Below are positions 13,954 through 55,222 of a stretch of 64,000 nt of DNA, piece by piece. The stretch's first letter is position 1. Every line of letters begins with the position of its first letter. The translations under genes were made by a program, and so were the position numbers. The notes beneath the pieces were generated by a model that was given only the letters and a program-made list of their open reading frames with translations, did not search any database and was not told where the DNA came from. The stretch spans positions 59,363,560 to 59,427,559 of the forward strand of contig NC_134839.1 in NCBI RefSeq assembly GCF_965363235.1, read 5' to 3'. This stretch comes from Mytilus galloprovincialis. Taxonomy: Eukaryota > Mollusca > Bivalvia > Mytilida > Mytilidae.

Positions 13954-15482
13954 ATGTCCAGTGCACGATGTTTTGTCGATATTGTCAACATCGCAATGTC
14001 AACTTTATAGTGTCGTTATTGTGTTAACATTGTATCCTATCTTTATGTTCTGTACCTTTGTGTTTACATTGTTCACATCGTATATTCCTGATGTTGACAA
14101 TGTCGTGTCAACATCGTGTTCATGTTGTATATCGACCTATAATTTTCTGTTTACATCGTTGACATCGTATACATCGTGATGTTGACAATATCGTTTTTAC
14201 ATTGTCAACATTGTATAGATGTTTTGAACCAAGTCTTTACTTTTGTGTTTACATCGTTCACATCGTTTACATCGTGATGTTGATAATATCGTTTTTTACA
14301 TTGTCAACATTGTATAAATGTTGTGAACCAAGTCTCAATCTTTGTGTTTACATCGTTCACATCGTATACATCGTGATGTTAACAACATCGTGTCAACATC
14401 GTTTTTATGTTCAATATAGAGTCCAAACCTTTCTGTTTACATCGTTCACATTGTATACATCGTGATGTTGACAATATCGTTTTTACATCGTCAACATCGT
14501 ATAGATGTTGTGAACCAAGTCTTTACCTTTGTGTTTACATCATTCACATTGTATACATCGCAATGATGACAATATCGTGTCAGCATCGTGTTTATGTTGA
14601 ATATAGAGTCCACACCTTTCTATTTACATCGTTCACATCGTATACATCGTGATGTTGACAATATCGTTTTTACATCGTCAACATCGTATAGGTGTTGTGA
14701 ACCAAGTCTTTACCTTTGTGTTAACATCGTTCACATCGTATACATCGCAATGTTGACAAAATCGTGTCAACATCGTGTTTATATTGTATATCGACTCTAT
14801 AACTTTATGTTTACATCGTTAACATCGTTTACATCGTGATGTTGATAATATCGTTTATACATCATTTACATCGTCAACATCGTATAAATAATGTGAACCA
14901 AGTCTATACCTTTGTATTTACATCGTTTACATCGTATACATTGTGATGTTGACAATATAAAAAAAAAGTTTTTTTATTCATTTATATAATAATTATTCAT
15001 TGAAGTTTGTCGATTACATGTATACAGTTTGCATTTTTATGTTTTTCTTTAAAATAAAATGTGATGTTATAGCTCTAATTTGACACAAAATAGTGTCAAC
15101 ATAGTTTATATGGCGATGTAAACTATGTAAACACAAAATCTTTTTAACATTGTATACATCACGACGTTTATGATGTCAACGATGTAAACAATATATGAGA
15201 GTTAAACAATGTAAACGATGTTGACACAACATCGTGTTAGTATTGTATACATCGCGATGTTAACGATGTCAACGATGTAAACAATATATAAGGGTTCAAA
15301 CAATGTATACGATGTTGACACAACATCGTGTAAACATTGTATACATCGCGATGTTAACGATGTCAACGATGTAAACAATATATAAGGGTTCAAACAATGT
15401 ATACAATGTTGACACAATATCGTGTTAACGTTGTAGATATTGTTATGTCTACAATATTGATTAATCATCGTGCACTGGACAT
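13954..15482. mobile_element. TIR-bounded element filled with inverted satellite arrays
   Basis: ATGTCCAGTGCACGATG at 13954-13970 is exactly mirrored by CATCGTGCACTGGACAT at 15466-15482. The left two-thirds (about 14030-14960) is an array of units of roughly 88 and 98 bp that share GTTTACATCGTTCACATCGT and GATGTTGACAATATCGT. The right third (about 15110-15460) carries units of about 94 bp in the opposite orientation (CGATGTTGACACAACATCGT, GTATACATCGCGATGTTAACG). An AT-rich segment (about 14960-15100) separates the arrays. Frames across the arrays are repeat translations and are not genes. The transposon superfamily is unknown. Confidence 0.7.
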
Positions 15483-23865: not shown

Positions 23866-26800
23866 AAAACGTCAGGCTTGGTGTGTGGAACGTAAATGGT
23901 TGGTCTAAATATAAAAATTCGGATAATTCTAGGATTAGAGAAAGTGTTTTGAATTTCCTTAATTTGGATATAATTTGTGTTTGTGAAACCTTCTTAAAAA
24001 ACGATGATAATATTGAAATCAGTGGTTATCAATGGTATGGCCATAATAGAAAGTTTTAAAATGCAAAAATGAGAGGATCTGGTGGTGTGGGTGTGTTGAT
24101 AAATGATGAAGTCTTGGATATTTTAAGTGTTTCAATTCTTGATAGTTCAGTGGAAGATATTTTGTGGATTAAATTATCACATAAATATGATGATTCAAAT
24201 AATGTATGTGTGTGTTTGCTATTTACCACCGGAAGGGTCAAGTCGTTTAAATGATGGTGAAAAATTTTATAATGATCTGCTACAACAAGTTTCTTGCTAC
24301 CAAAATGAAGGCTTTGTGTATATTGGTGGAGATGTTAATTCTAGATGCGGGAGCGAGCAGGATTACATACAAGGTGTGGATGATATTAACGACAGAGAAA
24401 TTATTGACGTTATAAGTAACAAGTACGGTGATCGTCTAATTGACTTTTTGACCAGTTGTAACTTGTGTATGCTAAATGGTCGTGCTGATGGACATAACGA
24501 CTTCACTTGTGTATCAAAGCGTGGACGGTCAGTTTTTGACTATGTCTTTACACCTCATGAACAGTTAGACATGCGTACAAGCTGTGACGTGTATTTAATG
24601 TCTGATTTTATAGTCGATACTGGTTTGAACTTTGAGAAGTCCATCCCGTACCATGGACCAACAGTGTGGACTGTAAACGTAAAGAACGACATTGCATGCG
24701 ATACGAGTAATATTGGACAAGCACCAAATACAGATAGACCCAGGTACAATTTAAAACGCTTCCCATTGAACTTTCTTGACAACAATAAACACATTCAAGA
24801 TACTATTGACAAAATTAAACACGAACTAGTCACAAATAAAGACTTTAAAAGTCCATATACAGAGTGTGTTACTTTAATTGAAAGAGGATGAAAGACACAG
24901 TTCCCATATCGAAGACCCCGACAGGACCAAGTTCAAATAAAAGGAAGAAATCGCTTTGAAAAACATATTGGACTGAAGAACTTACCTCATTATGGATTAA
25001 GTGTGTATTAAAGAAAAGCAGTGGTTGAAATGCAAAAACTACACTAATCTGAGACGTAAACTAAAACAGGAGTTTTGTAATAATCGTAATTAGTTCGATA
25101 AACTAAATAGAAATACTAAACGTAACTTTCAATTAAAGGAGCAGGATAATTTGACTAAACTGTTTCAAAGTAATAGCACTCGGGACTTTTGGAAATACAT
25201 TGGTAATATTGGCATTGAGAATGAACGTCGCCAAAACATTCCATTTAAAGTAAAAACAGATGAAGGCTTTAGTAGTGATGTTGATGTTGTCCTGGACGAT
25301 TGGAAAACAGATTATGAAAAACTATTTAATTCTGGTGATAATAACAACTTTGATAACAATCATTTAGACTGGGTAAAGGGAAACAATCATGTTTTCCCCG
25401 ACTAGGAAGTATGATACCTTGAACTGCCCTGTTACGAGACAAGATGTCATTGACGCTGTAAATAGGACTAACTTGAATAAAGCAGTCGGTTTTGACTATA
25501 TTCATGCGGAAAGTTTACGCAATAGCATATGTATAGACCTGTTATTTAAACTTATGTCATTCTGCTTTCAAAATGGTAAAGTGTCTGATTTATGGTTAAA
25601 TGGAATTATCAATCCTATTCCAAAAAATGATAGTGGTTGTAAATTCGATCATATGTCATATAGAGGTATAACTATTTTATATATCCCATGTAAAAAATTT
25701 GCTGACAATTGGAATAAGCGTCTAAATAAATGGCTTCATGAAAATGAAATTTTATGTGATGAACAGAACGGTTTTCGAAAAGCTAGAAACTGTACAGATC
25801 ATGTTTATGTATTAGATAATATTGACAAAATCAAAAAAAATGCAAACAAGGATACATTTGTATCTTTTGTTGACGCAAAGAAAGCATTTGATATTGTTGA
25901 TAGAGACTGTCTACTATTTAAATTGAGAAAAAATGGTAATAGCGGTATATTTTTAAATTGTATTACTTCTTTATACAGTAATGTCAATTGTGCAGTCAGA
26001 GTAAATAACTTTATGACATCCTTTTTTCCTGTTGCTCTTGGTGTAAAACAAGGCTGTGTTTTATCGCCGACTTTATTTTCTATCTATGTAAATGATTTAG
26101 CCTCAGATATTAAAGAAGCAAATTGTGGTATTCAAATAGATAACATAATGGTCTCTATGTTATTATATGCTGATGACATTGCATTGATTGCACCTGATGC
26201 AGAGAAACTGCAAAAGCAGTTGGACATTTTAAAGAAGTGGTGTGAAAAGTGGAGATTAACTCTAAATAAAAACAAAACCAAAATTGTTCATTTTAGAAAT
26301 AAATCTATACAAAGAAGTAATTTTCAGTTCAAATGTGGTGAACTTTGTCTTGAATATGCAGCTTGTTATAAATATCTTGGTGTACTTTTGAATGAATTTT
26401 CAGATTATTCTATAATTGCAAATGAATTGTATAAATCAGCTAATGGAGCTCTTGGTGTTATAAAGGCAAAATTTTGTAAAACTGGTGGTATGAATTTTGA
26501 TGTATTTACTAAATTATATGACACTTTAGTCAAACCCATTTTTACATATGCTTCCGGTGTATGGGGCATTAATATACATAATAGTATAAATAATTTGAAA
26601 AACAATGCTTGTAAATTTTTCTTAGGCTTAAGCAAAAGACGCAGCAACTTAGCTGCTAGAGGTGATATGGGTTTTTTATCAGGTGATGCACTACTAAAAG
26701 TTGAAGTTTTTAAACTATAGAATCGTCTGAAATGTGACAACACCAGTAATATATGTAAAAAGGTTCATACCTGGACGATTGGAAGAAAATCGTCATGTGA

Positions 26801-28203: not shown

Positions 28204-28635
28204 TTATTTTAAGATCAGCTTGGGCATGCCATGTGATCTTAAATGACGACTTACGGGGAGGTCGGGCTTGCAGGTGTAGTCACTACGATGACCATTCATG
28301 CGTTTGTTGAATGGCTGTTCTGTCTCGCCAACATACTGCATGCCACATCGACACTGAAGAATGTATACAACATTCTGGGTTTTGCAAGTTACATTACAAA
28401 ATATTGTGTACACAGACCCAGTGGAGTGGCAAGTAAAAGTTTGAGTATTCAGTAATTGTTGGCAAGTCAGACATCGTCCACATGACTTGCACCATCCTGT
28501 AGTTGAACAGCTTTTATTAGAGGAGACGGCAGCTTTCACTAATAAGTCTTTTAGACTTGCTGGTCTCCGAAAAGCTAAGACAGGAGGATCGGGAAAGATT
28601 TTGGATAATTTTGGGTGATTGGCAATACTTGCCAA
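28204..28635 (-). pseudogene. GIY-YIG endonuclease region of the Penelope-like element
   Basis: The readable frame contains CCKSCGRCLTC-like zinc-binding cysteines (CKSCGRCLTCQQL), then NVVYILQCRCGMQYVGETEQ and FNKRMNGHRSDY, and ends ...SRHLRSHGMPKLILK. The VYILQC...YVGETEQ core is the GIY-YIG signature, with the downstream R and H of the nuclease. In the family, this nuclease nicks target DNA for reverse transcription. The element as a whole is broken. Confidence 0.8.
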
Positions 28636-29011
28636 TTGGCACGGATCAAACGTGAAAGGTTAGTAAAGGCGGGATTTTATGTTAAAACAAATGGAACTAT
28701 TTTGCTGCGCATCTTCTTTTTGTATTGTAATAGATCATTGCGGCTGTTATTGTTAGCACGCGCAAAACCCTTATCTATGTCCCATTTCTTATAACCTCGT
28801 TTGATTAAAAATCCGCGAAGTTCCTGTAACCGCTGAGTGACAGCCTCCTCAGAGGAGCAAATCCGCTTTACTCTGAGAGCTTGACTGTACGGGATACTTT
28901 TTGTACAGTGTTTGGGATGACAGCTTTGGGGAGAAAGGTCCTGATGTTTATCTGTAGGTTTACAGTAGAGGTCTGTTGATATGACACCGTCCTTTATAGA
29001 TGTAGTTGTGT

Positions 29012-30274
29012 CTAAGAAAGATATCTTAGAGTTGGATATTTCATATGTAAATTTAATTGACTGTTTGCATGTCTGATAAAAGCATCCAATTTTTGTTGGG
29101 ATTCAATCCATTTCATGTCAACATCATCGATGAAACGGAACCAAGACAGAGGTTTGGATAAAGATGTTGAAATAATTTGTTTCTCTAATTTGCCCATGAA
29201 AATATTGGCGTAAGACGGTGCCATTTTCGTCCCCATCGCTGTCCCGTTTATTTGACGGTAATTCTCACCATTAAAGGTAAAATTGTTACATTTCAGGACC
29301 AGAGTAAGCAGCTGGACTACACATTCGGTAGGTGGTTCTAAAGTGTTGCGCGAGTCCCATATTTCCCTACACGATTGTATTCATATCATCATGAGGTATG
29401 TTGGTATACAATGAGGTGACATCTAAAGTGACAAGGAGGGTTTCCGGAGGAAGAGGGTTCATGGATTCCATTTTGCAAAGATAATCTGTAGTGTCTTGAA
29501 TATGAGAAGGAAGATTTTCTACATGAGATCTTAAATGAAAGTCTACAAATTCTGAGATGTTCTCAGTCGGTGGCCGTTGGCGGATACAATGGGTCTACCA
29601 GGGTTGTTAACCTTGTGTATTTTAGGAAGAAGATACAATCGACCAGGCTTGGCGTTCTCTGGTTTTAAATATCCAATTGTATCCTCATCTATGTGACCGT
29701 CATTGTGCATGGTTTGTAACGCAGTAATAATTTTGGAACTAAACTCGGAAGTAGGGTCATAGTCAAGTTTCTTATAAAATCTCTCATCAGAGAGCTGACG
29801 CTCTACTTCCGCGATGTAGTTGGCTTTGTCCATTATCACAACGGCACTTCCCTTGTCTGCTGGTTTTATAACAATATCATCTCGGTTTCTCAACGATTGT
29901 ATGGCTTTTTTCTCGTCAGAAGAGGTGTTATAAAACGACGAGTACTTGTTGCTGGCTAGATGAACAACATCCGATTTGATTTTGTCAATAACATCTTCCA
30001 GTGTAGCAGATTTGCTGGGCTTTGGAATCCATGAACTCTTCTTTTTAAAGTGCGGAATTATGATTTCGTCCTCCGAGTTGGACGTGTCTGTGTCTTCCTC
30101 ATTATCCTTCTCTTTATCCTTGTTACCAAAGTATTCTTTAATTCTGATGGTTCTGGCAAAGTTATTGAGGTCATCCTCCAGTTTCACATTATCTATGTTA
30201 CTTGGAGTAGGGCAAAAATTCAAACCCTTAGATAAGACTTTAGTTTCATCCTCAGTTAAAGAGACTGTTGACAA
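29012..30274 (-). pseudogene. Reverse-transcriptase region of the Penelope-like element
   Basis: The N-terminal part (30274-29543) has an acidic linker, then AIQSLRNRDDIVIKPADKGSAVVI, PGRLYLLPKIHK and [12 protein letters not shown]. The RDDIVIKPADKG and PKIHK signatures are diagnostic of Penelope-like reverse transcriptases. The C-terminal part includes [17 protein letters not shown] and WFRFIDDVD, the region carrying the catalytic acidic pair. The gene is broken. Confidence 0.8.
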
Positions 30275-30779
30275 ATTTATTTATATATAAATTAAATTAA
30301 ATTTCAAAATGCTCTTAAAGTCCTTTAACTCTCTACATTTTTCTCCAACCTGTTTCACATCTTTGTGATAATCATGGATGAATGTAACTAACGGTAATGT
30401 AACGTCACGATAATAAGGCTGTAACAATGCATTAAAGGGACGTAACCCTTACAAAAGTAACGTCTTATCTGTTTAGGCTTGGTTTGTACTTTTGTATAAA
30501 CATATTTTCTTTATTAATTCTCATTTCTTTGGTAAATTGGTCGTCACATTGGTAAAATGGGAAAACATAGTATTTGGGTGACTTGTTGCTAGCGCATAAA
30601 TCCATGTGTTCACTTACGTTAATCATCCTAATTTCTTTATGTCGAATTTGATGACGGTGAACAGTAAATCTTTTATATATATATATATAGATATTGTAAT
30701 GGATGGTGACATTATCTTATCTTATCACAAACCAAGCTAAACTAAATGGTCTACCGTTAGCTTTAAAGCATATGAAAAT

Positions 30780-32806
30780 ATCGCGCCTAATCGATGCCGG
30801 TGTGAGAAAAGGTGTAAAATCGAAAAATCGAACTCAGTTGAGCTCCACTGACTAATGCCAGCGTCACACTGTCCCGATTTTTACGCCGATGGCAACACGA
30901 TTATGGAAATTTTCAAAATCGGGACTGATCGTATCCAGATCGGGCTATTCGTAGTGCCATCTTTAACCATCGTAGAACCATCGGCCACTTTTTCTAGCCT
31001 TCGGGGACAACTTCGGGAAGGGTTCTAATTTTTTTAACATGTTGAAAAATCCCCGAAGGTGCGTCTGATGTTGAGGGTTCGTATTGAGTTCGTATCACCA
31101 TCCTCACCATCGTAATGTCACCGGGAATGCATCTTTGAACATCGTATTGCATTCGTGTTTCCATCGTTTTCATTGGGCAGTTTTGACATTACGATGTCTA
31201 CACGAATGAATCACGAAGCTACCCGGAGGTCTTACGATGGCAACACGACTTCGTGAAGACTTCGTAATCCCGTCGTGTTGCCATCGAATAAAAGTACGAA
31301 GGCGACAAGATGGAACTACGACAGCAATAAATCCAGCTAAATGTAAGTTAATTTTCGCGCTAAAATACATTTAAAGTGCCATGCGCGATATGCACTGGTC
31401 AGTCTAATACGACAGTTAAGAAAGACGCTCACAAAACATGGAGCTCATATCATATGATTCTATGAGAACAAGAAAGGCGATAGCGTTGTTTCTATTAATT
31501 CAAATGGAACAAGAAGAGCAGCTATTACAGGCTAAGGATTTATTTACAAGTAGAATATTATTTTTTGTCAATTTTTCATATCAAGTAACATAATGAAAAT
31601 CATAAACGCGCCTCGTACACCAACACTGCAGGTACACAGTATATAGGGAAACCAACTTTTTCTTCATTATTCTGATTTTTTATGTATCTTCTGAGTTGTT
31701 GTCATACGAACGTTTACTCCATAACCATTTTGTTTTCTATATGTCATGTTTTTGCCGCATTTGTTGCTTTCCCCACATTCTTCCTTTTGTCTATATTATT
31801 ATGATATTCTCCTGGAAAGAGCTCTTTTGAATAAAAGGGATCAACGAACCCATTACCTTACCTTTAAGATAGATCAGTAAACATGGGCATAATTATGGGT
31901 GATTATTCAGACTAGTGCACACATTTAACAGTTCAAACAAGGCAATGCCGAGCGTGGCATCCCCTCGTATGTAACATATTGGGGACAAATATGGACACTA
32001 TATTTGTATATGACACATGCAGAAAATAGTAAATTGAATATGCATATTTGATACATAAACTATTTTTTTAGAAATCAACAAAAACATTCAGTAACTGGAA
32101 ATACCTTTAATATTGTCTTTAGAACCAGCAGGTAAAAAAATGAGCAACCAATTTCCTGGGTATTATGCTATTTCAAGGAGAAAAAACAAGTTCATCTGCA
32201 TGACCTTGACCTTTGGCCTTGAACGTAAAAAATGTCAGATCATTACAAGGAGGAACAATATACCAGATGTGGTTAAAATCTTTTGAAGAATATTGGTTTT
32301 AGTGTGTCCACAAGGGTGATATTGCCTTGTATTCCAACTGCCACTGTGACCTTGACCTTTGAACTTTAAAGTCAATAGCGCTTAAGCTGTACACGACGTC
32401 TTTTAGACATCGTATGGCCATCGCGTCATCATCGTAATCCATCGTGTAGCCTTCGTAATCCATCGCGTAGCCTTCGTGATCTATCGTGTAGGCTTCGGCT
32501 GCGATATGAAGCTTAAATACCCGTCTTCGGTTAACCTTCGTATGTCCATCTTTTGATATCGTTTATAATTTCGGCACCATCGTATAAACTTCGTTATTCT
32601 TCGTACTTGCTTCGGTCACTTTTTGGTATTTTAACGAGATCGGGACCAACTTCGTACGAACTTACAATTTTCGCATTCGGGTGTCCATCGTATATAAAAA
32701 TCGGGACAGTGTGACGCGGGCATTATAACGGATCATAACGAGCATAATCGAGATCATTGTGAAAAAGGGCGTTATATCGAATTCAGTTAAGCTCCACATT
32801 GAACAC
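30780..32806 (+). repeat. Direct repeats flanking the short TIR element
   Basis: TAATCGATGCCGGTGTGAGAAAAGG...CTCAGTTGAGCTCCACTGA (about 30788-30851) is repeated as TAATCGAGATCATTGTGAAAAAGG...TTCAGTTAAGCTCCACATTGA (about 32742-32803). The short element therefore appears to have inserted in or between two units of an older tandem repeat. Confidence 0.6.
30855..32723. mobile_element. Gene-less 1.87-kb copy of the recombinase element
   Basis: The ends ATGCCAGCGTCACACTGTCC and GGACAGTGTGACGCGGGCAT match those of the 41719-48831 element. The left block (30855 to about 31742) matches 41719 to about 42594, and the right block (about 31750-32723) matches about 47767-48831, nearly identically by eye. 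The join falls near TATGTCATG|TTTTTGCCGCATTTG. Both terminal kilobases are rich in CATCGTA and CTTCGTA motifs. The whole gene region of the long copy is missing. TA flanks both sides of the ATGCC/GGCAT ends (CTGACTA- and -TATAACG). Confidence 0.85.
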
Positions 32807-40959: not shown

Positions 40960-41449
40960 ATTGTAACAGCGGGAGAAAATTGTTCATCTTTTGATACGAA
41001 CATCATCTTTAATTTGCATATGATTTTCCTAAACTGTAATTTAATATACACAGCTTGAAGTTTTGTTCGTTTATTTGCTCGCCCGTGTATACGAAAAGCT
41101 GCATAATGTATGCAGTGTATATTTAACATGATTTATGTTGACAGAAGGGTACTTTTGACTGAAAAGCATTAATCATTATATCTTTTCAATTTTTTTAAAT
41201 ATGGAATTTATATAGTAGAATATTTAAGAAGTACACGCGTACACCTTAGGTATTTTGACGATGTACATATCGCAATATCATTGAATGTAGAATAATCGAC
41301 TAGGAAAAGACACATTGCAAGTCGGATCTTAAAAATACCCTTAATTGAAATGTTTGGTAAGTTGTTTCCACAAAACGCACTACTTAAATATGATAATTAA
41401 ATAAGGAGAAGTTAAGATCTTGTGCCAAATCAGGCCTTAAATCAAACAA
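40960..41449. other. No gene seen
   Basis: AT-rich spacer. The minus-strand frame at 40935-41129 overlaps the inferred promoter and is not supported. Confidence 0.4.
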
Positions 41450-41718
41450 AGGAGTAGGTTCAGTAAGACCCCTTTTTGGCCCCAAAATATAACTGTTTTA
41501 CAAAATTGTTAAAATGTAAACCTTTAGTTATTTATTGGACAGTAGAATGCTTCTGCTACATAAATATGGGCTGATTTTGACAATACAATGCACATATATC
41601 CGGTACTAGCACCATTAAGTCATGCTAAATTACTGAAATCCTCATAATTCTAGCATTTTAGCTAAATTTTAGACGGTTTTCGTGTAAAACGAAAGTGGCC
41701 GCATTCGTGTTCATCCTG
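41450..41718 (+). repeat. Left arm of an outer inverted repeat around the recombinase element
   Basis: AAAGGAGTAGGTTCAGTAAG at the outer end and GAAAGTGGCCGCATTCGTGTTCATCCT at the inner end are mirrored by 48887-49143 (AGGATGAACACGGATGCGGCCACTTTC ... CTTACCGGACCTACTCCTTT). The recombinase element appears to sit near the centre of this older foldback repeat. Confidence 0.65.
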
Positions 41719-42730
41719 ATGCCCGCGTCACACTGTCCCGATTTTTACGCCGATGGCAACACGATTATGGAAATTTTCAAAATCGGGACTGATCGTATCC
41801 AGATCGGACTATTCGTAGTGCCATCTTTAACCATCGTAGAACCATCGGCCACTTTATCTAGCCTTCGGGAAGAACTTCGGGAAGGGTTCTAAATTTTTTA
41901 ACATGTTAAAAAATCCCCGAAGGTGCGTCCGATGTTGAGGGTTCGTATTAAGTTCCTATCACCATCCTCACCATCGTAATGTAACCGGGAATGCATCTTT
42001 GAACATCGTATTGCATTCGTGTTTCCATCGGGCAGTTTTGACATTACGATGTCTACACGAATGAATCACGAAGCTACCCGAAGGTCTTACGATGGCAACA
42101 CGACTACGTGAAGACCTCGTAATCCCGTCGTGTTGCCATCGAATAAAAGTACGAAGGCGACAAGATGGAACTACGACGGCAATAAATCCAGCTAAATGTA
42201 AGTTAATTTTCGCGCTAAAATACATTTAAAGTGCCATGCGCGATATGCACTGGTCACGACAGTTAAGAAAGACGTTCACAAAACATGGAGCTCATCATAT
42301 GATTCTATGAGAACAAGAAAGGCGACAGCGTTGTTTCTATTAATTCAAATGGAACAAGAAGAGCAGCTATTACAGGCTCGGGATTTACTTTTACAAGTAA
42401 AATATTATTTTTTGTCAATTTTTCATATCAAGTAACATAATGAAAATCATAAACGCGCCCCGTACACCAACACTGCAGGTACACGTATATAGGGAAACCA
42501 ACTTGTTCTTCATTATTCTGATTTTTTATGTATCGTCTGAGTTGTTGTCACACGAATGTTTACTTCATAACCATTTTGTTTTCTATATGTCATATTCTAA
42601 TGCAATATTTTTAAAACAATCAATTTCATTGGTCAATATCTATTTCAGGCTTATGTAAATTTCACGTTTTACTAGGTCGCAACCGCATAACAAATTCATA
42701 CGCGTCGCACTTGTTTTGTTTTGCATAACA

Positions 42731-45700
42731 ATGGCTGACCTAAATACCTCTACTTTTGACAACAATGACCCGAATGACGAGAATAACTCACAGAATGAAC
42801 TATTTTTGTTAATGCCTTTAGTGTTGCCAAACTTTAATTTAGAAACAAGTTTATTAGAAGGGTTAGAAGAGGACCAAACGGCAGATACGGCAGAAAACCC
42901 ACCAGTCAACACAACAGCAGACGACGCCGACATATTGCAATTGTCAACGGAGAATTGCACAGCTGATCAGTCTACTAGTATGAATTCAAATCCCATGGAA
43001 GTGGACTTGGTTGCAGCTGATGTTTCTCGTAGGTGTCAAACAAATTCAAGCAGAATAAAACCTGCACAGCTTTCTCCATAACACCTTATCTCTTCTGTTA
43101 TGCACCCCCCCTTTTCTTTTTTTTGTTACTCCTCTTAAAAGTCTTTAATAATCTATGTTTTTAATAAGTGGAATTAACCTTTCCATGCAAGTCAAAATAA
43201 ATATATAAATACATATAAACTTGCAAATTTTCAAATAAAACCACTTCATTTTAATTCAGCATAACATTGGGCTGCGAAAAAAGGAGTGAGACACAAAAAT
43301 ACTATTTTTAAACCTGAAATCCACCTTCCATATAAGAGATACATGTAATTGTATTGTATTTAAAGCTTGGCCTTTCGTAAAATTGGGTGATACTGTATTG
43401 TATTGGAGGATTTGCGGGTAGGTAAACCGGGGTTTTTACTGTTGCAAACTGAGTTTACCTGGCGACGCGGAGAGGAGACAGGTAAACAGATATTTGCACC
43501 CCCAGTTTACCCGGCTAGTCCCTAAATACAATACAGTTATCTCCATTCTAGTGCAATTGTCTCTAAACTTTTACGAAGGCTTAAAATACAATACAGTTAT
43601 CTCTATTTTAATGCAGCATATTAAAACAAATACCATATGCATTTAACAAATATTTTGGGGTAAAATGACATAAATGAAAAAGTCCAGGGAAACTGTTGCA
43701 TTGTCTTTAGCAACTTAACAATGTGACGTTATATGTATACTCATGATGCCAAACATAAACTAAAACTAGACATATTTATACCCTTTGAATGCTTTAGAAT
43801 GCCTGAATGGCTTCAATGTTGACAAAAAGAACATTTTGAGGCTAAAAATGTGACTTTCAATGTTTATCTTGTGAGAAATGAAATACATTGTATCAAAAGA
43901 ATGTTGGAAATCAAAATGTTTGCTTTCGATTAGGCATGATTAGTTTACATTTGTAGTAACGAACTGATAGAAAGTGGAATTTACCCATTCAAAGTATTTG
44001 TCAACTTCCAAAGACAATTATTGTTACAAAAAATCGCCTTAAAAAATAAAAAAATAAAAAGCTTTGTTACAAACGTACTGTTGCAAATAAGATAAAGCAT
44101 GTACATGTATCTTTGTTTATCTGTTGCAGTGGACCCCTTGATTGACCCTGAGAGTGATGTTGACTTGATAGAAGCTGTCAACATACTAGAATCACAGAAA
44201 GAAAACAATGCTGTTCTTCAAAGCCGCTTTGCGGAACTAGATGATGAGGAAATGGAGTTGATTTTAGATGATGCCAACAGCAAAGGAACCAAAAAAATGA
44301 CCAAATATGGAGTCAAAATATTCAAACGTACGTTATCTGATGGACAAAAAATTTTAAGAAAAGATATGTAAATTGTATATGAATTTCATTATAATGATAA
44401 ATACCACTAGAGATTATAAATAATACAAAAAAGTTTATATTTTCCTGCTATTGACCTATTGTTGTATATATATATAGTCAATATGTAACCATGGCAACAG
44501 GCAATATCTTTGAATACTCTTATTTAGATTGATTTGACGCATGTTTCAACATGTACATCATCATTAATGTAGATCTTGTATCACAAAATTGTAAATCAGC
44601 TAGCTGCTATTATGCAGCAAGTACACATTCTGTAAATCATACAGTTAACTACATGTACATTGTACATGTATAGGAGGAAGTTTATATCCAAAGTAGGAAA
44701 GCTTTTTCTGCACATTCAGTCTCCATTTTAATAACTCTCATTTACCAATAAAGCTCACTATATTCTGATCATTCATCCACCATTATTATTTGCACAATTG
44801 AAATCTTCACACTATTTTTCATTTTCATCTTTGAAAGGCGTGGTCATGAAAACCAATGTAAATTTTCAGAAAACACTTTTGCAATTTAAAAAGATATTAG
44901 CGGTTTATTCTATATTCTTAACTCGGTCCAAATATCACCATCTCCTTGCTTTCCCTGTTCTTTCAATCACAAAAGGTGATCTTGAGAAACTACAAAATTC
45001 AAATATGTTGTGTCTTGAAAACCAAAGATGTCTACAACGCAAAGTTTGGTTTGACATGCATAATGCTAAGTTTTAGAAGGCACAGTCGTGAAAACCATCT
45101 TGAATTTTTAAAGAACACTTTTCAATTTAAAAGATAGTTGCGTATATTCTATATCTTTAAATAGGCCGAAATATCACCCTCTCCTTGCTTTCACTGTTCA
45201 CATGATTATGTTGTGTTTCAACATTAACTCTTTCGGCAAATAAGGCATGCAGAACCAAAATGCTCTCAGTAGCAGTGCCCAGCACTGTGTGGCCATACAT
45301 ATATGATCGTCACTTGTTACTGAAATTGAAAAAAATATCACATATTACTACTGTATTATATATATATATAACTACTTTGATATGCAAGACGAGAACAATT
45401 ATTGCTGTACAATATTAAGTTAAAACAAATTAGGAAATAACTGTACGGTATTTTCAGCTTGGCCTTCGTAAAACCTACATTTTACTGTTCATTTCAAATT
45501 CAGTTTTCTTGGCGACACGTAGCAGAGCTAGGTAAACAGATAATTTGTGACAGTAAAATCAAGTTTTACGAAGGCCAAGCTTAAAATAAAATACAGTTTA
45601 CTCCATTCTAGTGCAGCATATTAAAATAAATACCATTTAACTAATATATTGGCGTAAAATGTGATGAATGAGAAAGTCTGCGAAACTATTGCATTGTCTT

Positions 45701-47222
45701 CAGCATTAACTCGTATACTCACGATGTCAAACATAAACTCTAGACATATTTATTGCCAACCACTCAAATGGCGACAGTAAAACCAGCGGTTTACTGTTGC
45801 GAATTCTCAAATACAATATATGGTTTTAATATGCAACCTAACAATAAATGTACGTCAAGCTAAAAATACATTTAGCATGTTAAAGTAACTCCACTCGAAT
45901 CACATAAAATAAAGGCCATAATTTTTCCAGATCTTAAAGTTACATAAAAGCCGTAATTCTTTACCGGTCCTTCAATTACATTAAGAATAATAAACAGCTT
46001 AAAGGAACCTTTGTATCTCTATTTTTTAGAATGGCTTGCTGACAGAAACAAAGATGTCAACTTTGAAAACTTCAGCACAGAAATGCTCAACACTTCTTTA
46101 CGTGAATTTTACACTCAAGTCAGGACAACTGATGGGAACTTCTACTCAAAAAGTACTTTTGTTGGAATCCGTGCTTCCATAAGCCGCCATTTAAGAAGCC
46201 CTCCCTATAACCGTCCAGAATCTCTTATGGAAGATAAATCGCTTTATACCTCAAACCAAATGTTTACTGCAATGTTAAAGAAGTTACAGCGGGAGGGACT
46301 TGACAGAACAAAACACCACTCTTCAATCGCAGAAGGCGATCTCGAAAAATTAAGAAATTCACATGTGTTGTCTCTTGAAAACCCAAGAAGTCTACAACGC
46401 AAAGTTTGGTTTGACATTATGCTAAGCTTTGGGAGGCGTGGTCGGGAAAACCAACGTAAATTTGCAGACAACACTTTTGCAATTCAAAGAGATAGTCGCG
46501 GTGTAGAATATGTTGAATTTCAAATGTCAGAAACAACTAAAAATCATAAAGGGGATCAAACAGACGATGACTTTGAAAGAAATCCACGTATGTATGCAAC
46601 AGGCAATGACAACTGTCCTCTTAAAGCATTTCAGAAATACATGAGTAAAAGGTGTACAAGCAGTACTCATTTCTTCCAGCAACCGCGGGCAAAAGTAAAC
46701 AAGGATGATAATACATGGTATACATCACGGCCTGTTGGAGAAAAAATGCTGAATGACATGATGAAACAAATATCTACAGAAGCCAAACTCAGTAAAATGT
46801 ACACTAACCACTGTGTTCGCGCTACGACAGTTACTGTCTTGTCTCATGCTGGAGTTTCCAATAGGGAAATCATGAAGATTACAGGGCACAAGTGTGAGAG
46901 CAGTCTCGATTCGTACAATGCCGACTCTTCTGAAGCCCAAAAAAGAAAATATTCGGGAATCCTGCAAGGGAAATCACCCAATAATCAAACTGCCACCTCT
47001 CACACTGTTGCAATATCTCAAAACCCTGCTAATGTCTTACCTGCACATCTTCAAGCGCCACCTTGTCCTCCGTCTGTACCGTACAACATGAACATGTTGC
47101 AGAACGTGTGTCTCAACAACACTAACATCAACACCAGAATGTCGGTTCCTTCATACAACAAACAGTTTGAAATAAACCATTCCTCCGTTCAGATCTTCAA
47201 CTACCATGTACCACAGCAATGA
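42731..47222 (+). CDS. DUF3504/Crypton-like tyrosine recombinase, three exons
   Basis: Exons are 42731-43028, 44130-44327 and 46030-47222 (TGA). Donors GTAGGT and GTACGT and acceptors TTGCAG and TTTTAG are all phase 1, giving 562 aa. The ATG (AACAATGG) begins an acidic, Asn/Asp/Thr-rich N-terminus (about 1-165) that may act in protein contacts. From about residue 160, KIFKQWLADRNKDVNF starts the SAM-like/core-binding domain. The catalytic domain shows Arg in FGRRGREN (301-304), H426-C-V-R429, H452 in TGHK and the nucleophile Y461 in SLDSYN. The spacings R429-H452 (23) and H452-Y461 (9) are normal for tyrosine recombinases. The family includes Crypton transposases and the host-adopted ZMYM2/QRICH1/KCTD1-type domains, many of which I believe have lost active-site residues; here none is missing. 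The gene lies between matched element ends. A poly-Gln/Pro-containing tail follows the domain. Confidence 0.88.
43382..43560. repeat. Palindromic repeat P, copy 1 (intron 1)
   Basis: ATACTGTATTGTATTGGAGG ... AGTTTACCTGGCGACGCGGAG ... AATACAATACAGTTATCTCC. It shares ends and core with 47592-47759 but is more diverged. Non-coding. Confidence 0.7.
44836..45210 (+). pseudogene. Two degraded tandem copies of part of exon 3
   Basis: Within intron 2, GGCGTGGTCATGAAAACCAA (44836) and its tandem relative GGCACAGTCGTGAAAACC (45078) match exon 3 at 46436. The preceding stretch, 44972-45075, translates as KGDLEKLQNSNMLCLENQRC and LQRKVWFDM, against EGDLEKLRNSHVLSLENPRS and LQRKVWFDI in exon 3. Stops and frameshifts follow. 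The unit is about 242 bp. These are decayed partial exon duplicates, not alternative exons. Confidence 0.75.
45445..45606. repeat. Palindromic repeat P, copy 2 (intron 2)
   Basis: CTGTACGGTATTTTCAGCTTGGCCTTCGTAAAAC ... TTTTCTTGGCGACACG ... GTTTTACGAAGGCCAAGCTTAAAATAAAATACAG. The core and ends are related to the other P copies, and the arms carry a different inner segment (TTACGAAGGC). A further partial copy lies near 45766-45815. Confidence 0.65.
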
Positions 47223-47389
47223 TCATTGTCGACCCAATATGATTGACTTCTTCAGTGATTTATACGGAGTTTAGAAGTGCTGCACCTCCAAACATCCGTG
47301 GTTGCCGCCATCTTACTTGTTATTAATTTTGTTCAAGTTTGAATCGTGAACTTTATTTAATATTCTATAAACAGTATTTCATTGAGAAA

Positions 47390-47395
47390 AATAAA
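47390..47395 (+). terminator. Candidate polyadenylation signal AATAAA
   Basis: First AATAAA after the recombinase stop codon (47220-47222), giving a 3' UTR of about 170-200 bases, before palindrome P copy 3. Confidence 0.5.
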
Positions 47396-47591
47396 ATATT
47401 TGATATATCTTTACCAGCAAGTTATTTATTCAACAATATTTTGTGGTCTGAAAATATTTTGGAAACTTTCTTCTTGGAACTATATTTTGTCGGAGGGTTA
47501 TTATTATGACGCTTCGAAAACATATTGAAGTCACATGACTTCTATAAATAATTCCAATATTAACTATTTTTAAAGACGATTTCACTAGAAT

Positions 47592-47759
47592 GGAGATAAC
47601 CGTATTGTATTTGAGGATTTGCGGGGGTAAACCGGGGGTTTTACTGTCGCAAATATCCGTTTACCTGTCTCCGCTCCGCGTCGCCAGGTAAACTCAATTT
47701 GCGACAGTAAAACCCCCGGTTTACCCCCGCAAATCCTCAAATACAATACGGTTATCTCC
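47592..47759. repeat. Palindromic repeat P, copy 3, nearly perfect
   Basis: GGAGATAACCGTATTGTATTTGAGG ... GGGGTAAACCGGGGGTTTTACTG is followed by an unpaired core (TCCGTTTACCTGTCTCCGCTCCGCG) and the reverse complement of the arm. The arms are about 65 bases and match almost without error, so this is the youngest P copy. It abuts the block shared with the short element. Confidence 0.85.
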
Positions 47760-48886
47760 TAATTTTCCCGCATTTGTTGCTTTCCCCACATCCTTCCTTT
47801 TGTCTATATTATTATGATATTCTCCAGGAAAGGGCTCTTTTTGAATAAAAGGGATCAACGAACCCATTACCTTACCTTTAAGATAGATCAGTAAACATGG
47901 GCATAATTATGGGTGATTATTCAGACTAGTGCACACATTTTACAGTTCAAACAAGGCAATGCCGAACGTGGCATCCCCTCGTATGTAACATATTGGGGAC
48001 AAATATGGACACTATATTTGTATATGACATATGCAGAAAATGGTAAATTGAATATACATATTTGATATATAAACTATTTTTTTTAGAAATCAACCAAAAC
48101 ATTCAGTAACTGGAAAAACCTTTAATATTGTCTTTTGAACCAGCAGGTAAAAAAATGAGCAACCAATTTCCTGTGTATTATGCTATTTCAAGGAGAAAAA
48201 AACAAGTCCATCTGCATGACCTTGACCTTTGGCCTTGAACGTAAAAAATGTCAGATCATTACAAGGAGGAACAATATACCAAATGTGGTTAAAATCTTTT
48301 GAAGCATAATGGTTTTAGAGTGTTCACAATGGTGATATTGCCTTGTATTACAACTGCCACTGTGACCTTGACCTTTGAACTTTAAAGTCAAAAGCGCTTA
48401 AGAGAAATTAAATGTACAATATAATATATTCAATATTGATTAAACAATTTACAACGCGTGATGCCTTCGGCATATAATTTAAATGCATCGTAAGCTGTAC
48501 ACGACGTCTTTAAGACATCGTAAGGCCATCGCGCCATCATCGTAATCCATCGTGTAGCCTTCGTAATCCATCGTGTAGCCTTCGTGATCCATCGTTTAGG
48601 CTTCGGCTGAGATATGAAGCTTACATACCCGTCTTCGGTTAACCTTCGTATGTCCATTTTTTGCTATCGTACATAATTTCGGCACCATCGTATAGACTTC
48701 GTTATTCATCGTACTTGCTTCGGTCACTTTTTGGTATTTTAACGAGATCGGGACCAACTTCGTATGAACTTTCAATTTTCGCATTTGGGTGTCCATCGTA
48801 TATAAAAATCGGGACAGTGTGACGCGGGCATTAATATTGAAATGTAAGTTGTATTTTATGATAATACATAACATATATAAAGGTTG

Positions 48887-49143
48887 AGGATGAACACGGA
48901 TGCGGCCACTTTCATTTTTACCAAAAACCATCTGAAAAGTGATATTTTTCGGCATATTAGGTAGATTTTTCATATTTGAGCTTGAATCGGATCGTTTTTA
49001 ATGACTAAATCTGTTAAAATCTTTCACATAAACTAATTAATTCAAATAAAATAGACACTTAAGTGTTTAAAAAGTGGTCAAAATCTTCGTCAGATGAACC
49101 TGAAATTTGAGGCCAAAATCGGTCCTTACCGGACCTACTCCTT
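48887..49143 (-). repeat. Right arm of the outer inverted repeat
   Basis: Reverse complement of 41450-41718, with several internal differences. See the left arm. Confidence 0.65.
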
Positions 49144-49269
49144 TCCTTTCCTTTTTTTTCAATTCGAAATCAAAGTTATGTATTTCAAGTGAATAGAGAT
49201 TTCCCAAGAGGCTGTGTCGCTCACCAGACTCTACTTCGGTTTTTGAAATCATATAAAAAAAGATAAAAT

Positions 49270-49875
49270 TGGTTTAATATTGCATTCCATTCTGTGGTTT
49301 TCTAAAAGAAGACATTTGTATGTTTTTCTCATGGGTGCTCTTGGATGATGGATCGGCTACAAAGTAACAACATTTGGTCAGAACCTCATAAGGAACATTC
49401 ATGCTATGTTTGATTCCATTCAGTGGTCCTCTAAAAGAAGACATTTGTATGTATTTTTTCCATAGGGTCCTATGTTAAACTAAGTCCCATGCTGGCGGTA
49501 ATCTTGGATGATGGATCGACTACAAAGTAACAACTCTTGGTCAGCACCTCAAAAGGAACATTCATGCTATGTTTGGTTTCATTCTATTCAGTGGTTCTCT
49601 AAAAGAAGACATTTGTATGTATTTCCTAATGGGTCCTATGTTAAACTGAGTCCCTCGCTGGTGGCCATTTTGGATGATGGATCGGCTACAAAGTAACAAC
49701 ACTTGGTCAGCACCTCATTAGGAACAGTCATGCCATGTTTAGTTTCATTCCATTCAGTGGTTCTCTACAAGACGTTCAAAATGTAAAAAGTTAACGGCTA
49801 CGACAGACGACGACGGACGACGGACGCTAAGTCATGAGAAAAGCTCACTGGGCCCTTCGGGTCAGGTGAGCTAAA
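49270..49875 (-). repeat. Family G end with an internal ~165-bp tandem repeat
   Basis: It ends TCATGAGAAAAGCTCACTGGGCCCTTCGGGTCAGGTGAGCT, the reversed family G terminus. Upstream, units beginning TTGGATGATGGATCGGCTAC occur at 49341, 49504 and 49670 (periods 163 and 166). Each has AAAAGAAGACATTTGTATGT and GGTCCTATGTTAAAC in the same place. The 62-codon frame at 49508-49696 is part of the array. Confidence 0.75.
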
Positions 49876-54897: not shown

Positions 54898-55222
54898 TCG
54901 TCGAGTTGCAAGTTGCGAGTTTAGAAAGTCGAGTTGCAAGTTATGAAAGTCGAGTTGCGAGTTACAAAAGTCGAGTTGCGAGTTAAGAAAGTCGAGTTGC
55001 GAGTTAAAAAAAGTCGAGTTGCGAGTTACAAAAGTCGAGTTGCAAGTTACAAAAATCGAGTTGCAAGTTACGAAAGTCGAGTTGCGAGTTAAGAAGGTCG
55101 AGTTTCGAGTTACAAAAGTGGAGTTGCGAGTTACAAAAGTGGAGTTGCGAGTTATAAAAGTCGAGTTGCGAGTCACGAAAGTCGAGTTGCGAGTTACAAA
55201 AGTCGAGTTGCGAGTTACAAAA
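54898..55222. repeat. 21-bp minisatellite, GTCGAGTTGCGAGTTACAAAA
   Basis: About 15 copies of a 21-bp unit with small variants (TTACAAAA, TTAAGAAA or TTACGAAA between GTCGAGTTGC cores). Because 21 is a multiple of three, several frames on both strands stay open (for example minus strand 54895-55176, repeating VTRNSTF). These are not genes. Confidence 0.92.

What the first reader, a model, noticed from the sequence alone, without database searches (positions are those of the whole stretch)
41719..48831. A transposon with terminal inverted repeats that carries a tyrosine recombinase
The only intact gene between these matched inverted termini encodes a DUF3504/Crypton-like tyrosine recombinase with all catalytic positions present. 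Classic Cryptons lack terminal inverted repeats, and TIR transposons normally use DDE enzymes. The combination suggests either an undescribed class of YR transposon or a recombinase gene captured by a TIR element. The terminal kilobases are rich in CATCGTA/CTTCGTA motifs that could be protein-binding sites.
Basis: partly seen in the sequence, partly recalled or inferred. Interest (0 to 1): 0.88.

Follow-up and report, generated by a model that had tools for sequence, protein, structure and literature searches.

The report
Inverted-repeat transposon carrying a tyrosine recombinase
A jumping-gene unit has matching inverted ends, usually a sign of one type of enzyme, but its only recognisable gene encodes a different type, a tyrosine recombinase; a shorter copy without that gene lies nearby, so whether this enzyme moves the unit is still open.

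Summary
Perfect 29-bp inverted repeats (41719-41747, 48803-48831) bound a 7.1-kb unit (A) whose only recognised gene is an intact three-exon DUF3504 tyrosine recombinase (562 aa predicted; R-HxxR-H-Y present). No DDE domain was found in six frames. A second copy (B, 30855-32723), not in the finding, has the same ends, different flanks and 65 mismatches in 1843 aligned bases, and lacks the 5.17 kb holding the whole gene. So the ends bound a mobile-type unit, and 1 of 2 copies has no gene. No target duplication exceeds 2 bp: TA fits B only; AT fits both copies if the repeats start at GCC. The likeliest single mechanism is a CryptonA-type element whose inverted ends are recombinase half-sites, with B an internal-deletion derivative (0.35). 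Two rivals together weigh more: a Crypton nested in an ordinary inverted-repeat transposon (the missing segment starts and ends with CTAAT and B reads as a clean empty site), or a unit moved in trans by a DDE enzyme with the recombinase as cargo. Published animal Cryptons lack terminal repeats; some fungal Starships have inverted ones. No eukaryote genome was searchable, so the deciding census of copies could not be made.

The parts
41719..48831 (+). copy A, whole TIR-bounded unit (7113 bp)
41719..41747 (+). left terminal inverted repeat, 29 bp
48803..48831 (-). right terminal inverted repeat, 29/29 complementary to the left
41719..42230 (.). left subterminal region rich in CWTCGT motifs (both strands), with a second ATCGGGAC site at 41782
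48403..48831 (+). right subterminal region: 14 CWTCGT motifs, all on one strand, partly a 21-bp tandem array; ATCGGGAC at 48747 and 48808
42731..43028 (+). exon 1 of the recombinase gene (predicted)
   Evidence: ATG, GT donor, frame kept
44130..44327 (+). exon 2 (predicted); the joined protein has a better QRICH1-domain match than exon 3 alone (E 3.1e-4 against 0.04), both below cut-off
46030..47222 (+). exon 3: DUF3504 / tyrosine recombinase catalytic region; HxxR at 46809-46820, Tyr codon 46914-46916
44829..45142 (+). degenerate partial duplicates of exon 3 inside intron 2 (80-85% identity)
47569..47766 (.). hairpin repeat (63-bp perfect arms 47592-47654 / 47697-47759); further copies at 43379-43567 (inverted) and 45427-45613 and a piece at 45762-45818; no hit outside A in the window
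42597..47763 (.). 5167-bp segment absent from copy B (borders uncertain by 1 bp); begins and ends with CTAAT
30855..32723 (+). copy B: same termini, no recombinase gene, different flanks

Best explanation
Copy A is an autonomous-type DNA transposon of the CryptonA kind that has true terminal inverted repeats. Its DUF3504 recombinase is its own transposition enzyme. The recombinase binds the inverted ends, with help from the subterminal ATCGGGAC and CWTCGT sites, cuts at the ends and joins them into a circle. The joined ends form a palindrome that works as a pair of inverted recombinase half-sites around a short crossover (as in Cre/loxP or Tn916-like elements, recalled). The circle then integrates at a new AT-rich site without a long target duplication. 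Copy B is a non-autonomous relative that lost the gene by internal deletion and can only move in trans. Shown: the two copies, their ends, the open gene, no DDE domain found, no duplication longer than 2 bp. Inferred: that the recombinase acts on these ends, the circle, and the direction of the A-to-B change. This is the likeliest single mechanism, but the two rivals in which a DDE enzyme moves the ends weigh more together.
For: Perfect TIRs with homology ending at them in two copies with unrelated flanks. The gene is open across three predicted exons; HxxR, GH and Tyr align with a solved integrase, weakly, E 0.04. No DDE domain in six frames of A or of B. No target duplication of 3 bp or more in 2 of 2 copies. 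Joined ends give a 58/58 palindrome for A and 56/58 for B, which any such TIR would give. ATCGGGAC occurs 8 times in 64 kb, all in A and B, two per end. B also lacks 92 bp near the right end (88 bp between BLAST blocks plus one copy of a TAAG repeat); in A this stretch holds part of a CATCGTA motif of the terminal type, so I read it as a deletion in B. The right edge of B's large gap lies within a few bases of the edge of a long hairpin, a plausible deletion end point.
Against: Only one copy carries the gene. Described animal Cryptons have no terminal repeats (PMC3212892, passages). The ends also allow a 2-bp duplication of DDE type: with repeats starting at ATGCC, TA/TA in B but TG/TA in A; with repeats starting at GCC, AT/AT in both A and B (sequences), and unit C (13954-15482) also begins and ends with AT. 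Removing 42597-47763 from A gives B's sequence in register (4 mismatches in 74), and that segment begins and ends with CTAAT (0.0017 of random cut pairs, noticed after the fact), which fits an insertion into a B-like element. The shared left arm holds a coding-like stretch unrelated to the recombinase (noticed in passing).
Confidence: 0.35

Rival explanations
1. Nested insertion: a CryptonA element without inverted repeats (about 42597-47763, 5.17 kb) inserted into a B-like TIR transposon that a DDE enzyme moves. The recombinase then has nothing to do with the TIRs, and B shows the empty site.
For: B matches A with that segment removed, with no filler (4 mismatches in 74). The segment starts and ends with CTAAT, and fungal, oomycete and diatom Cryptons have 4-6-bp terminal direct repeats (PMC3212892 passages). 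Animal Cryptons were reported without TIRs (same passages). The predicted gene starts only 134 bp inside the segment. Two B-type frames in 64 kb suggest a common host element (inference from n = 2).
Against: A Crypton joins at a shared core, so the empty site should keep one CTAAT; B has none. The right CTAAT belongs to the edge of the hairpin repeat, since the intron-2 copy shares CCTAATTT, so the match may be chance. B appears to have lost other DNA (92 bp).
Confidence: 0.28
2. Capture or passenger: A is a non-autonomous TIR transposon moved in trans by a DDE transposase (for example one of ISL2EU type with AT duplication, a TA-duplicating one, or a Spy-like one with none), and it carries the recombinase gene as cargo or as a second enzyme, as in MarCry.
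For: AT flanks both ends of A, B and C if the repeats are taken to start at GCC or GTCC (sequences), and ISL2EU elements make 5'-AT-3' duplications (PMC4482050 passages). Precedents: MarCry-1_FO (mariner plus Crypton, 16-bp TIRs, TA duplication) and Spy, DDE elements with no target duplication. The left arm shared by A and B has an open 30-codon stretch ending at a GT donor (A 42307-42396) that to my recollection resembles the leader of PIF/Harbinger transposases, which are relatives of ISL2EU. Subterminal motif arrays are common in DDE elements (recalled).
Against: No DDE domain in six frames of A or B, though a non-autonomous copy need not have one. The 30-codon stretch matched nothing in Pfam or the PDB. 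ISL2EU repeats usually start with GG, here GC. The flanks as read fit neither Spy's AAATTT nor PIF/Harbinger's TWA duplication. In A and B an AT duplication cannot be told from repeats that simply start with AT.
Confidence: 0.28
3. A host DUF3504 gene (ZMYM/QRICH1/KCTD1-like) lies by chance between two TIR copies, so the unit is not one element.
For: The gene has predicted introns and a QRICH1-domain match below cut-off.
Against: A's outer 0.9 kb and 1.07 kb match B in order on both sides. The catalytic residues are present, while the yeast CryptonF derivatives Cbf2 and Gcr1 do not keep theirs (PMC3212892, passage).
Confidence: 0.05

Closest known systems
CryptonA (animal Cryptons; Kojima and Jurka 2011, PMC3212892)
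   Same: DUF3504 tyrosine recombinase as the only gene; non-autonomous derivatives exist.
   Different: The authors found no terminal repeats in animal Cryptons; here there are perfect 29-bp TIRs.
MarCry-1_FO (Fusarium, mariner fused to a Crypton)
   Same: TIRs, a Crypton recombinase inside, possibly TA next to the ends.
   Different: MarCry carries a mariner DDE transposase; none was found here. Its recombinase is fungal CryptonF.
Starships (fungal, DUF3435 captain)
   Same: Tyrosine recombinase transposon; sometimes flanked by TIRs (PMC12134995).
   Different: Giant cargo elements of ascomycetes with direct repeats; their recombinases and those of Cryptons are described there as very distantly related.
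ISL2EU and Spy (PHIS superfamily)
   Same: TIRs; AT duplication (ISL2EU) is compatible with A and B; Spy has no target duplication.
   Different: DDE enzyme, not found here; ISL2EU repeats usually start GG; Spy prefers AAATTT.
Tec elements of Euplotes (recalled, not read)
   Same: TIRs plus a tyrosine recombinase gene.
   Different: Very long TIRs and a DDE transposase as well.

Membership tests
CryptonA | DUF3504-type tyrosine recombinase with catalytic residues | tested here: met
   placement rests on the Pfam family, no tree was built; the first Arg is assigned by recalled motif
CryptonA | no other enzyme encoded | tested here: met
   no other Pfam domain at cut-off
CryptonA | no terminal inverted repeats | tested here: not met
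   29/29 bp TIRs; would be met only if the true element is the inner 42597-47763
Crypton in general | 4-6-bp terminal direct repeats shared with the target | tested here: inconclusive
   CTAAT at both ends of the inner segment but absent from B
MarCry | mariner DDE transposase in the same TIR unit | tested here: not met
MarCry / Tc1-mariner | TA target duplication | tested here: inconclusive
   B: TA/TA; A: TG/TA
ISL2EU (PHIS) | AT target duplication | tested here: inconclusive
   AT at both ends of A and B if the repeats start at GCC; cannot be told from repeats starting with AT
ISL2EU (PHIS) | DDE transposase plus YqaJ exonuclease protein | tested here: not met
   neither in A or B; does not exclude a non-autonomous member
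Spy (PHIS) | DDE transposase and insertion within AAATTT | tested here: not met
Starship | DUF3435 captain at the 5' edge | tested here: not met
   Pfam reports DUF3504, not DUF3435
DIRS-like retrotransposons | reverse transcriptase inside the element | tested here: not met
CryptonA | moves by a circular intermediate and site-specific recombination | not testable with these tools
   needs experiment or polymorphic copies

The most novel reading that the evidence does not exclude
A lineage of animal tyrosine recombinase transposons has evolved true terminal inverted repeats that act as recombinase half-sites, and it supports gene-less, MITE-like derivatives. It would be a TIR superfamily that moves with no DDE enzyme, and surveys that equate TIRs with DDE would file it as unknown MITEs.
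Probability: 0.34. Interest if true: 0.78.

Novelty: new variant of a known kind. Interest (0 to 1): 0.52.

Why it matters
If the recombinase drives these ends, terminal inverted repeats no longer imply a DDE transposase in animals, and part of the unassigned inverted-repeat MITEs could have a tyrosine recombinase parent. A 2023 curated bivalve repeat library was built from DDE/D, LINE and SINE elements (PMC10294476, passages; 'Crypton' and 'tyrosine recombinase' occur 0 times in its main text), so such a family could be missed there. The A/B pair gives a concrete, cheap test.

Tried and rejected
Searches for further copies gave nothing useful. The TIR core in IMG/VR and in GTDB genomes: 0 hits. 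A back-translated catalytic motif in IMG/VR: 0; in GTDB: 1 hit, L001, an archaeal contig whose long reading frame there looks by eye like queC, so I take it as chance. The recombinase protein in IMG/VR: 1 stretch matched a pattern, not confirmed. The subterminal array in IMG/VR: 0. These collections hold prokaryotes and viruses, so the misses say nothing about animals. Structure prediction from one sequence gave mean pLDDT 32.3 and was not used. The only solved relative by sequence up to E 10 was an integrase at E 0.04. A DDE domain was sought in six frames of A and of B and not found. That B's flanks carry a long target duplication was rejected: the 22-bp direct repeat (20 of 22 identical) ends 6 bp before the left end and starts 52 bp after the right end, and the sequence around it is less alike. 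That the outer inverted repeats around A (41667-41717 / 48887-48937) belong to the element was rejected, because B's flanks do not have them. Literature: no animal Crypton with TIRs seen in the ten searches, of which I saw titles and starts of abstracts, some lists being cut (for example 20 of 74); Repbase Reports and most subscription journals are not held.

Full report
Observation. The reported unit (copy A) lies at 41719-48831. Its ends are 29-bp perfect inverted repeats 7055 bp apart. A 21-base core of the end, with up to 3 mismatches, occurs four times in the 64-kb window and in none of 100 shuffles. Two of the four hits are A's ends. The other two bound a second unit (copy B, 30855-32723), which is not part of the finding I was given.

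Copy B. B matches A over 41716-42596, 47763-48402 and 48491-48833. Counting only aligned bases, there are 65 mismatches in 1843 (26 of 870, 22 of 632 and 17 of 341). The matches stop 2-3 bases outside the inverted repeats, and the flanks are unrelated. So these termini bound a unit found at two places, as expected of a transposon. B lacks the 5.17 kb that holds the entire recombinase gene. It also lacks 92 bp near the right end: 88 bp between the BLAST blocks plus one copy of a TAAG repeat. In A that stretch contains part of a CATCGTA motif (48486-48492) like those of the terminal array. I read this second gap as a deletion in B; an insertion in A is not excluded.

The gene. Exon 3 contains the DUF3504 domain (E 7.3e-14) and a Phage_integrase match (E 1.1e-6). 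Two upstream open stretches join to it through GT/AG introns in one frame, giving 562 aa. The joined protein has a better QRICH1-domain match (E 3.1e-4 against 0.04), still below Pfam's cut-off, which supports the splice model. HxxR, GH and Tyr align with a solved integrase, although that match is weak (E 0.04). The first catalytic Arg (GRRGRE) is assigned by recalled motif. Degenerate partial exon-3 copies lie in intron 2. In six frames of A no domain but DUF3504 reached its cut-off, and six frames of B gave no family up to E 10.

Ends. CWTCGT is enriched in the right 429 bp (14 against a mean of 0.7 in 500 shuffles, all on one strand) and the left 512 bp (7 against 0.7, both strands). ATCGGGAC occurs 8 times in the window, all in A and B, two at each end: once in the TIR and once 47-61 bp further in. 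Such repeated sites fit binding by a recombinase or by a DDE transposase alike. Joining A's two ends gives a 58/58 palindrome. This follows from any perfect TIR, but it has the form of a recombinase core site, described as 11-13-bp inverted arms around 6-8 bp in PMC3212892 (passages).

Target sites. The flanks read CCTG|ATGCCC...GGGCAT|TAAT for A and ACTA|ATGCCA...GGGCAT|TATA for B. There is no duplication of 3 bp or more in either copy. If the repeats start at ATGCC, B has TA/TA and A has TG/TA. If they start at GCC, both copies have AT/AT, which would fit the 5'-AT-3' duplication of ISL2EU elements (PMC4482050, passages). But repeats that simply begin with AT would look the same. A third unit, C (13954-15482), also begins and ends with AT. 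Absence of a duplication would not prove a recombinase either, because Spy DDE elements make none. A sits inside an imperfect inverted repeat of other origin (41667-41717 / 48887-48937), 1 bp from the arm on the left and 55 bp from it on the right.

Deletion or insertion? If 42597-47763 is removed from A, the join matches B in register with 4 mismatches in 74 bases. That segment starts and ends with CTAAT; random cut pairs in A do this at a rate of 0.0017, and I noticed it after the fact. It favours a nested Crypton. Against that, B contains no CTAAT, although a recombinase joining at a shared core should leave one. The right CTAAT is also part of the edge of a hairpin repeat, whose intron-2 copy shares CCTAATTT. 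The hairpin repeat has three main copies and a fragment inside A and no hit elsewhere in the window at E 1e-3. I lean to deletion at the hairpin edge but keep the nested model at 0.28.

Known relatives. Kojima and Jurka found no terminal repeats in animal Cryptons; the same paper describes MarCry-1_FO with TIRs and a mariner enzyme (PMC3212892, passages). Starships are sometimes flanked by TIRs (PMC12134995, passages). Crypton annotations exist in the bivalve Mercenaria (PMC8905726, one passage). In the library searches (titles and starts of abstracts, lists partly cut) I saw no animal tyrosine recombinase transposon with TIRs and no DDE gene. Repbase Reports are not in that library, so a prior record there is possible.

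Limits. No genome is held for this window. The collections that could be searched hold prokaryotes and viruses and gave no relatives. Everything rests on two copies in one window. The mechanism is inferred. Odds: own recombinase 0.35, nested Crypton 0.28, DDE in trans with passenger 0.28. So it is somewhat more likely than not that the ends themselves belong to a DDE-type element, although the recombinase model is the likeliest single one.

Noticed in passing
13954-15482: A third TIR unit (C): perfect 17-bp ends ATGTCCAGTGCACGATG, arms 80% complementary over 50 bp, with CATCGT arrays in opposite orientations and no long gene seen. Its ends begin ATGTCC where A and B begin ATGCC; it may be a relative of the same group.
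   Followed up: partly
42307-42396 (and the matching stretch of copy B): Open 30-codon stretch MRTRKATALFLLIQMEQEEQLLQARDLLLQ ending at a GT donor in the left arm shared by A and B; it looks coding and, from memory, like a PIF/Harbinger transposase leader. B has a 2-base loss there. No Pfam or PDB match.
   Followed up: partly
41448-41717 and 48887-49144: Copy A sits inside an imperfect inverted repeat of another element, close to its centre.
   Followed up: partly
about 30774-30848 and 32731-32797: Copy B sits between two diverged direct repeats that share a 22-bp core (90.9% identical).
   Followed up: partly
44829-45142: Degenerate partial copies of exon 3 within intron 2 of the recombinase gene.
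   Followed up: no
43566-43779 and 45561-45753: Introns 1 and 2 share a 75%-identical stretch next to their hairpin repeats, as if part of one had been copied to the other.
   Followed up: no
24127-26720: Fragmented LINE: endonuclease match (E 1.3e-5, below Pfam's cut-off) and reverse transcriptase (E 8e-38).
   Followed up: no
28204-30274 (minus strand): ORFs that look by eye like a Penelope-like element with a GIY-YIG end; of the two ORFs scanned none had a Pfam match at its cut-off.
   Followed up: no
49339-49772 and 54911-55222: Tandem arrays with 166-bp and 21-bp periods.
   Followed up: no
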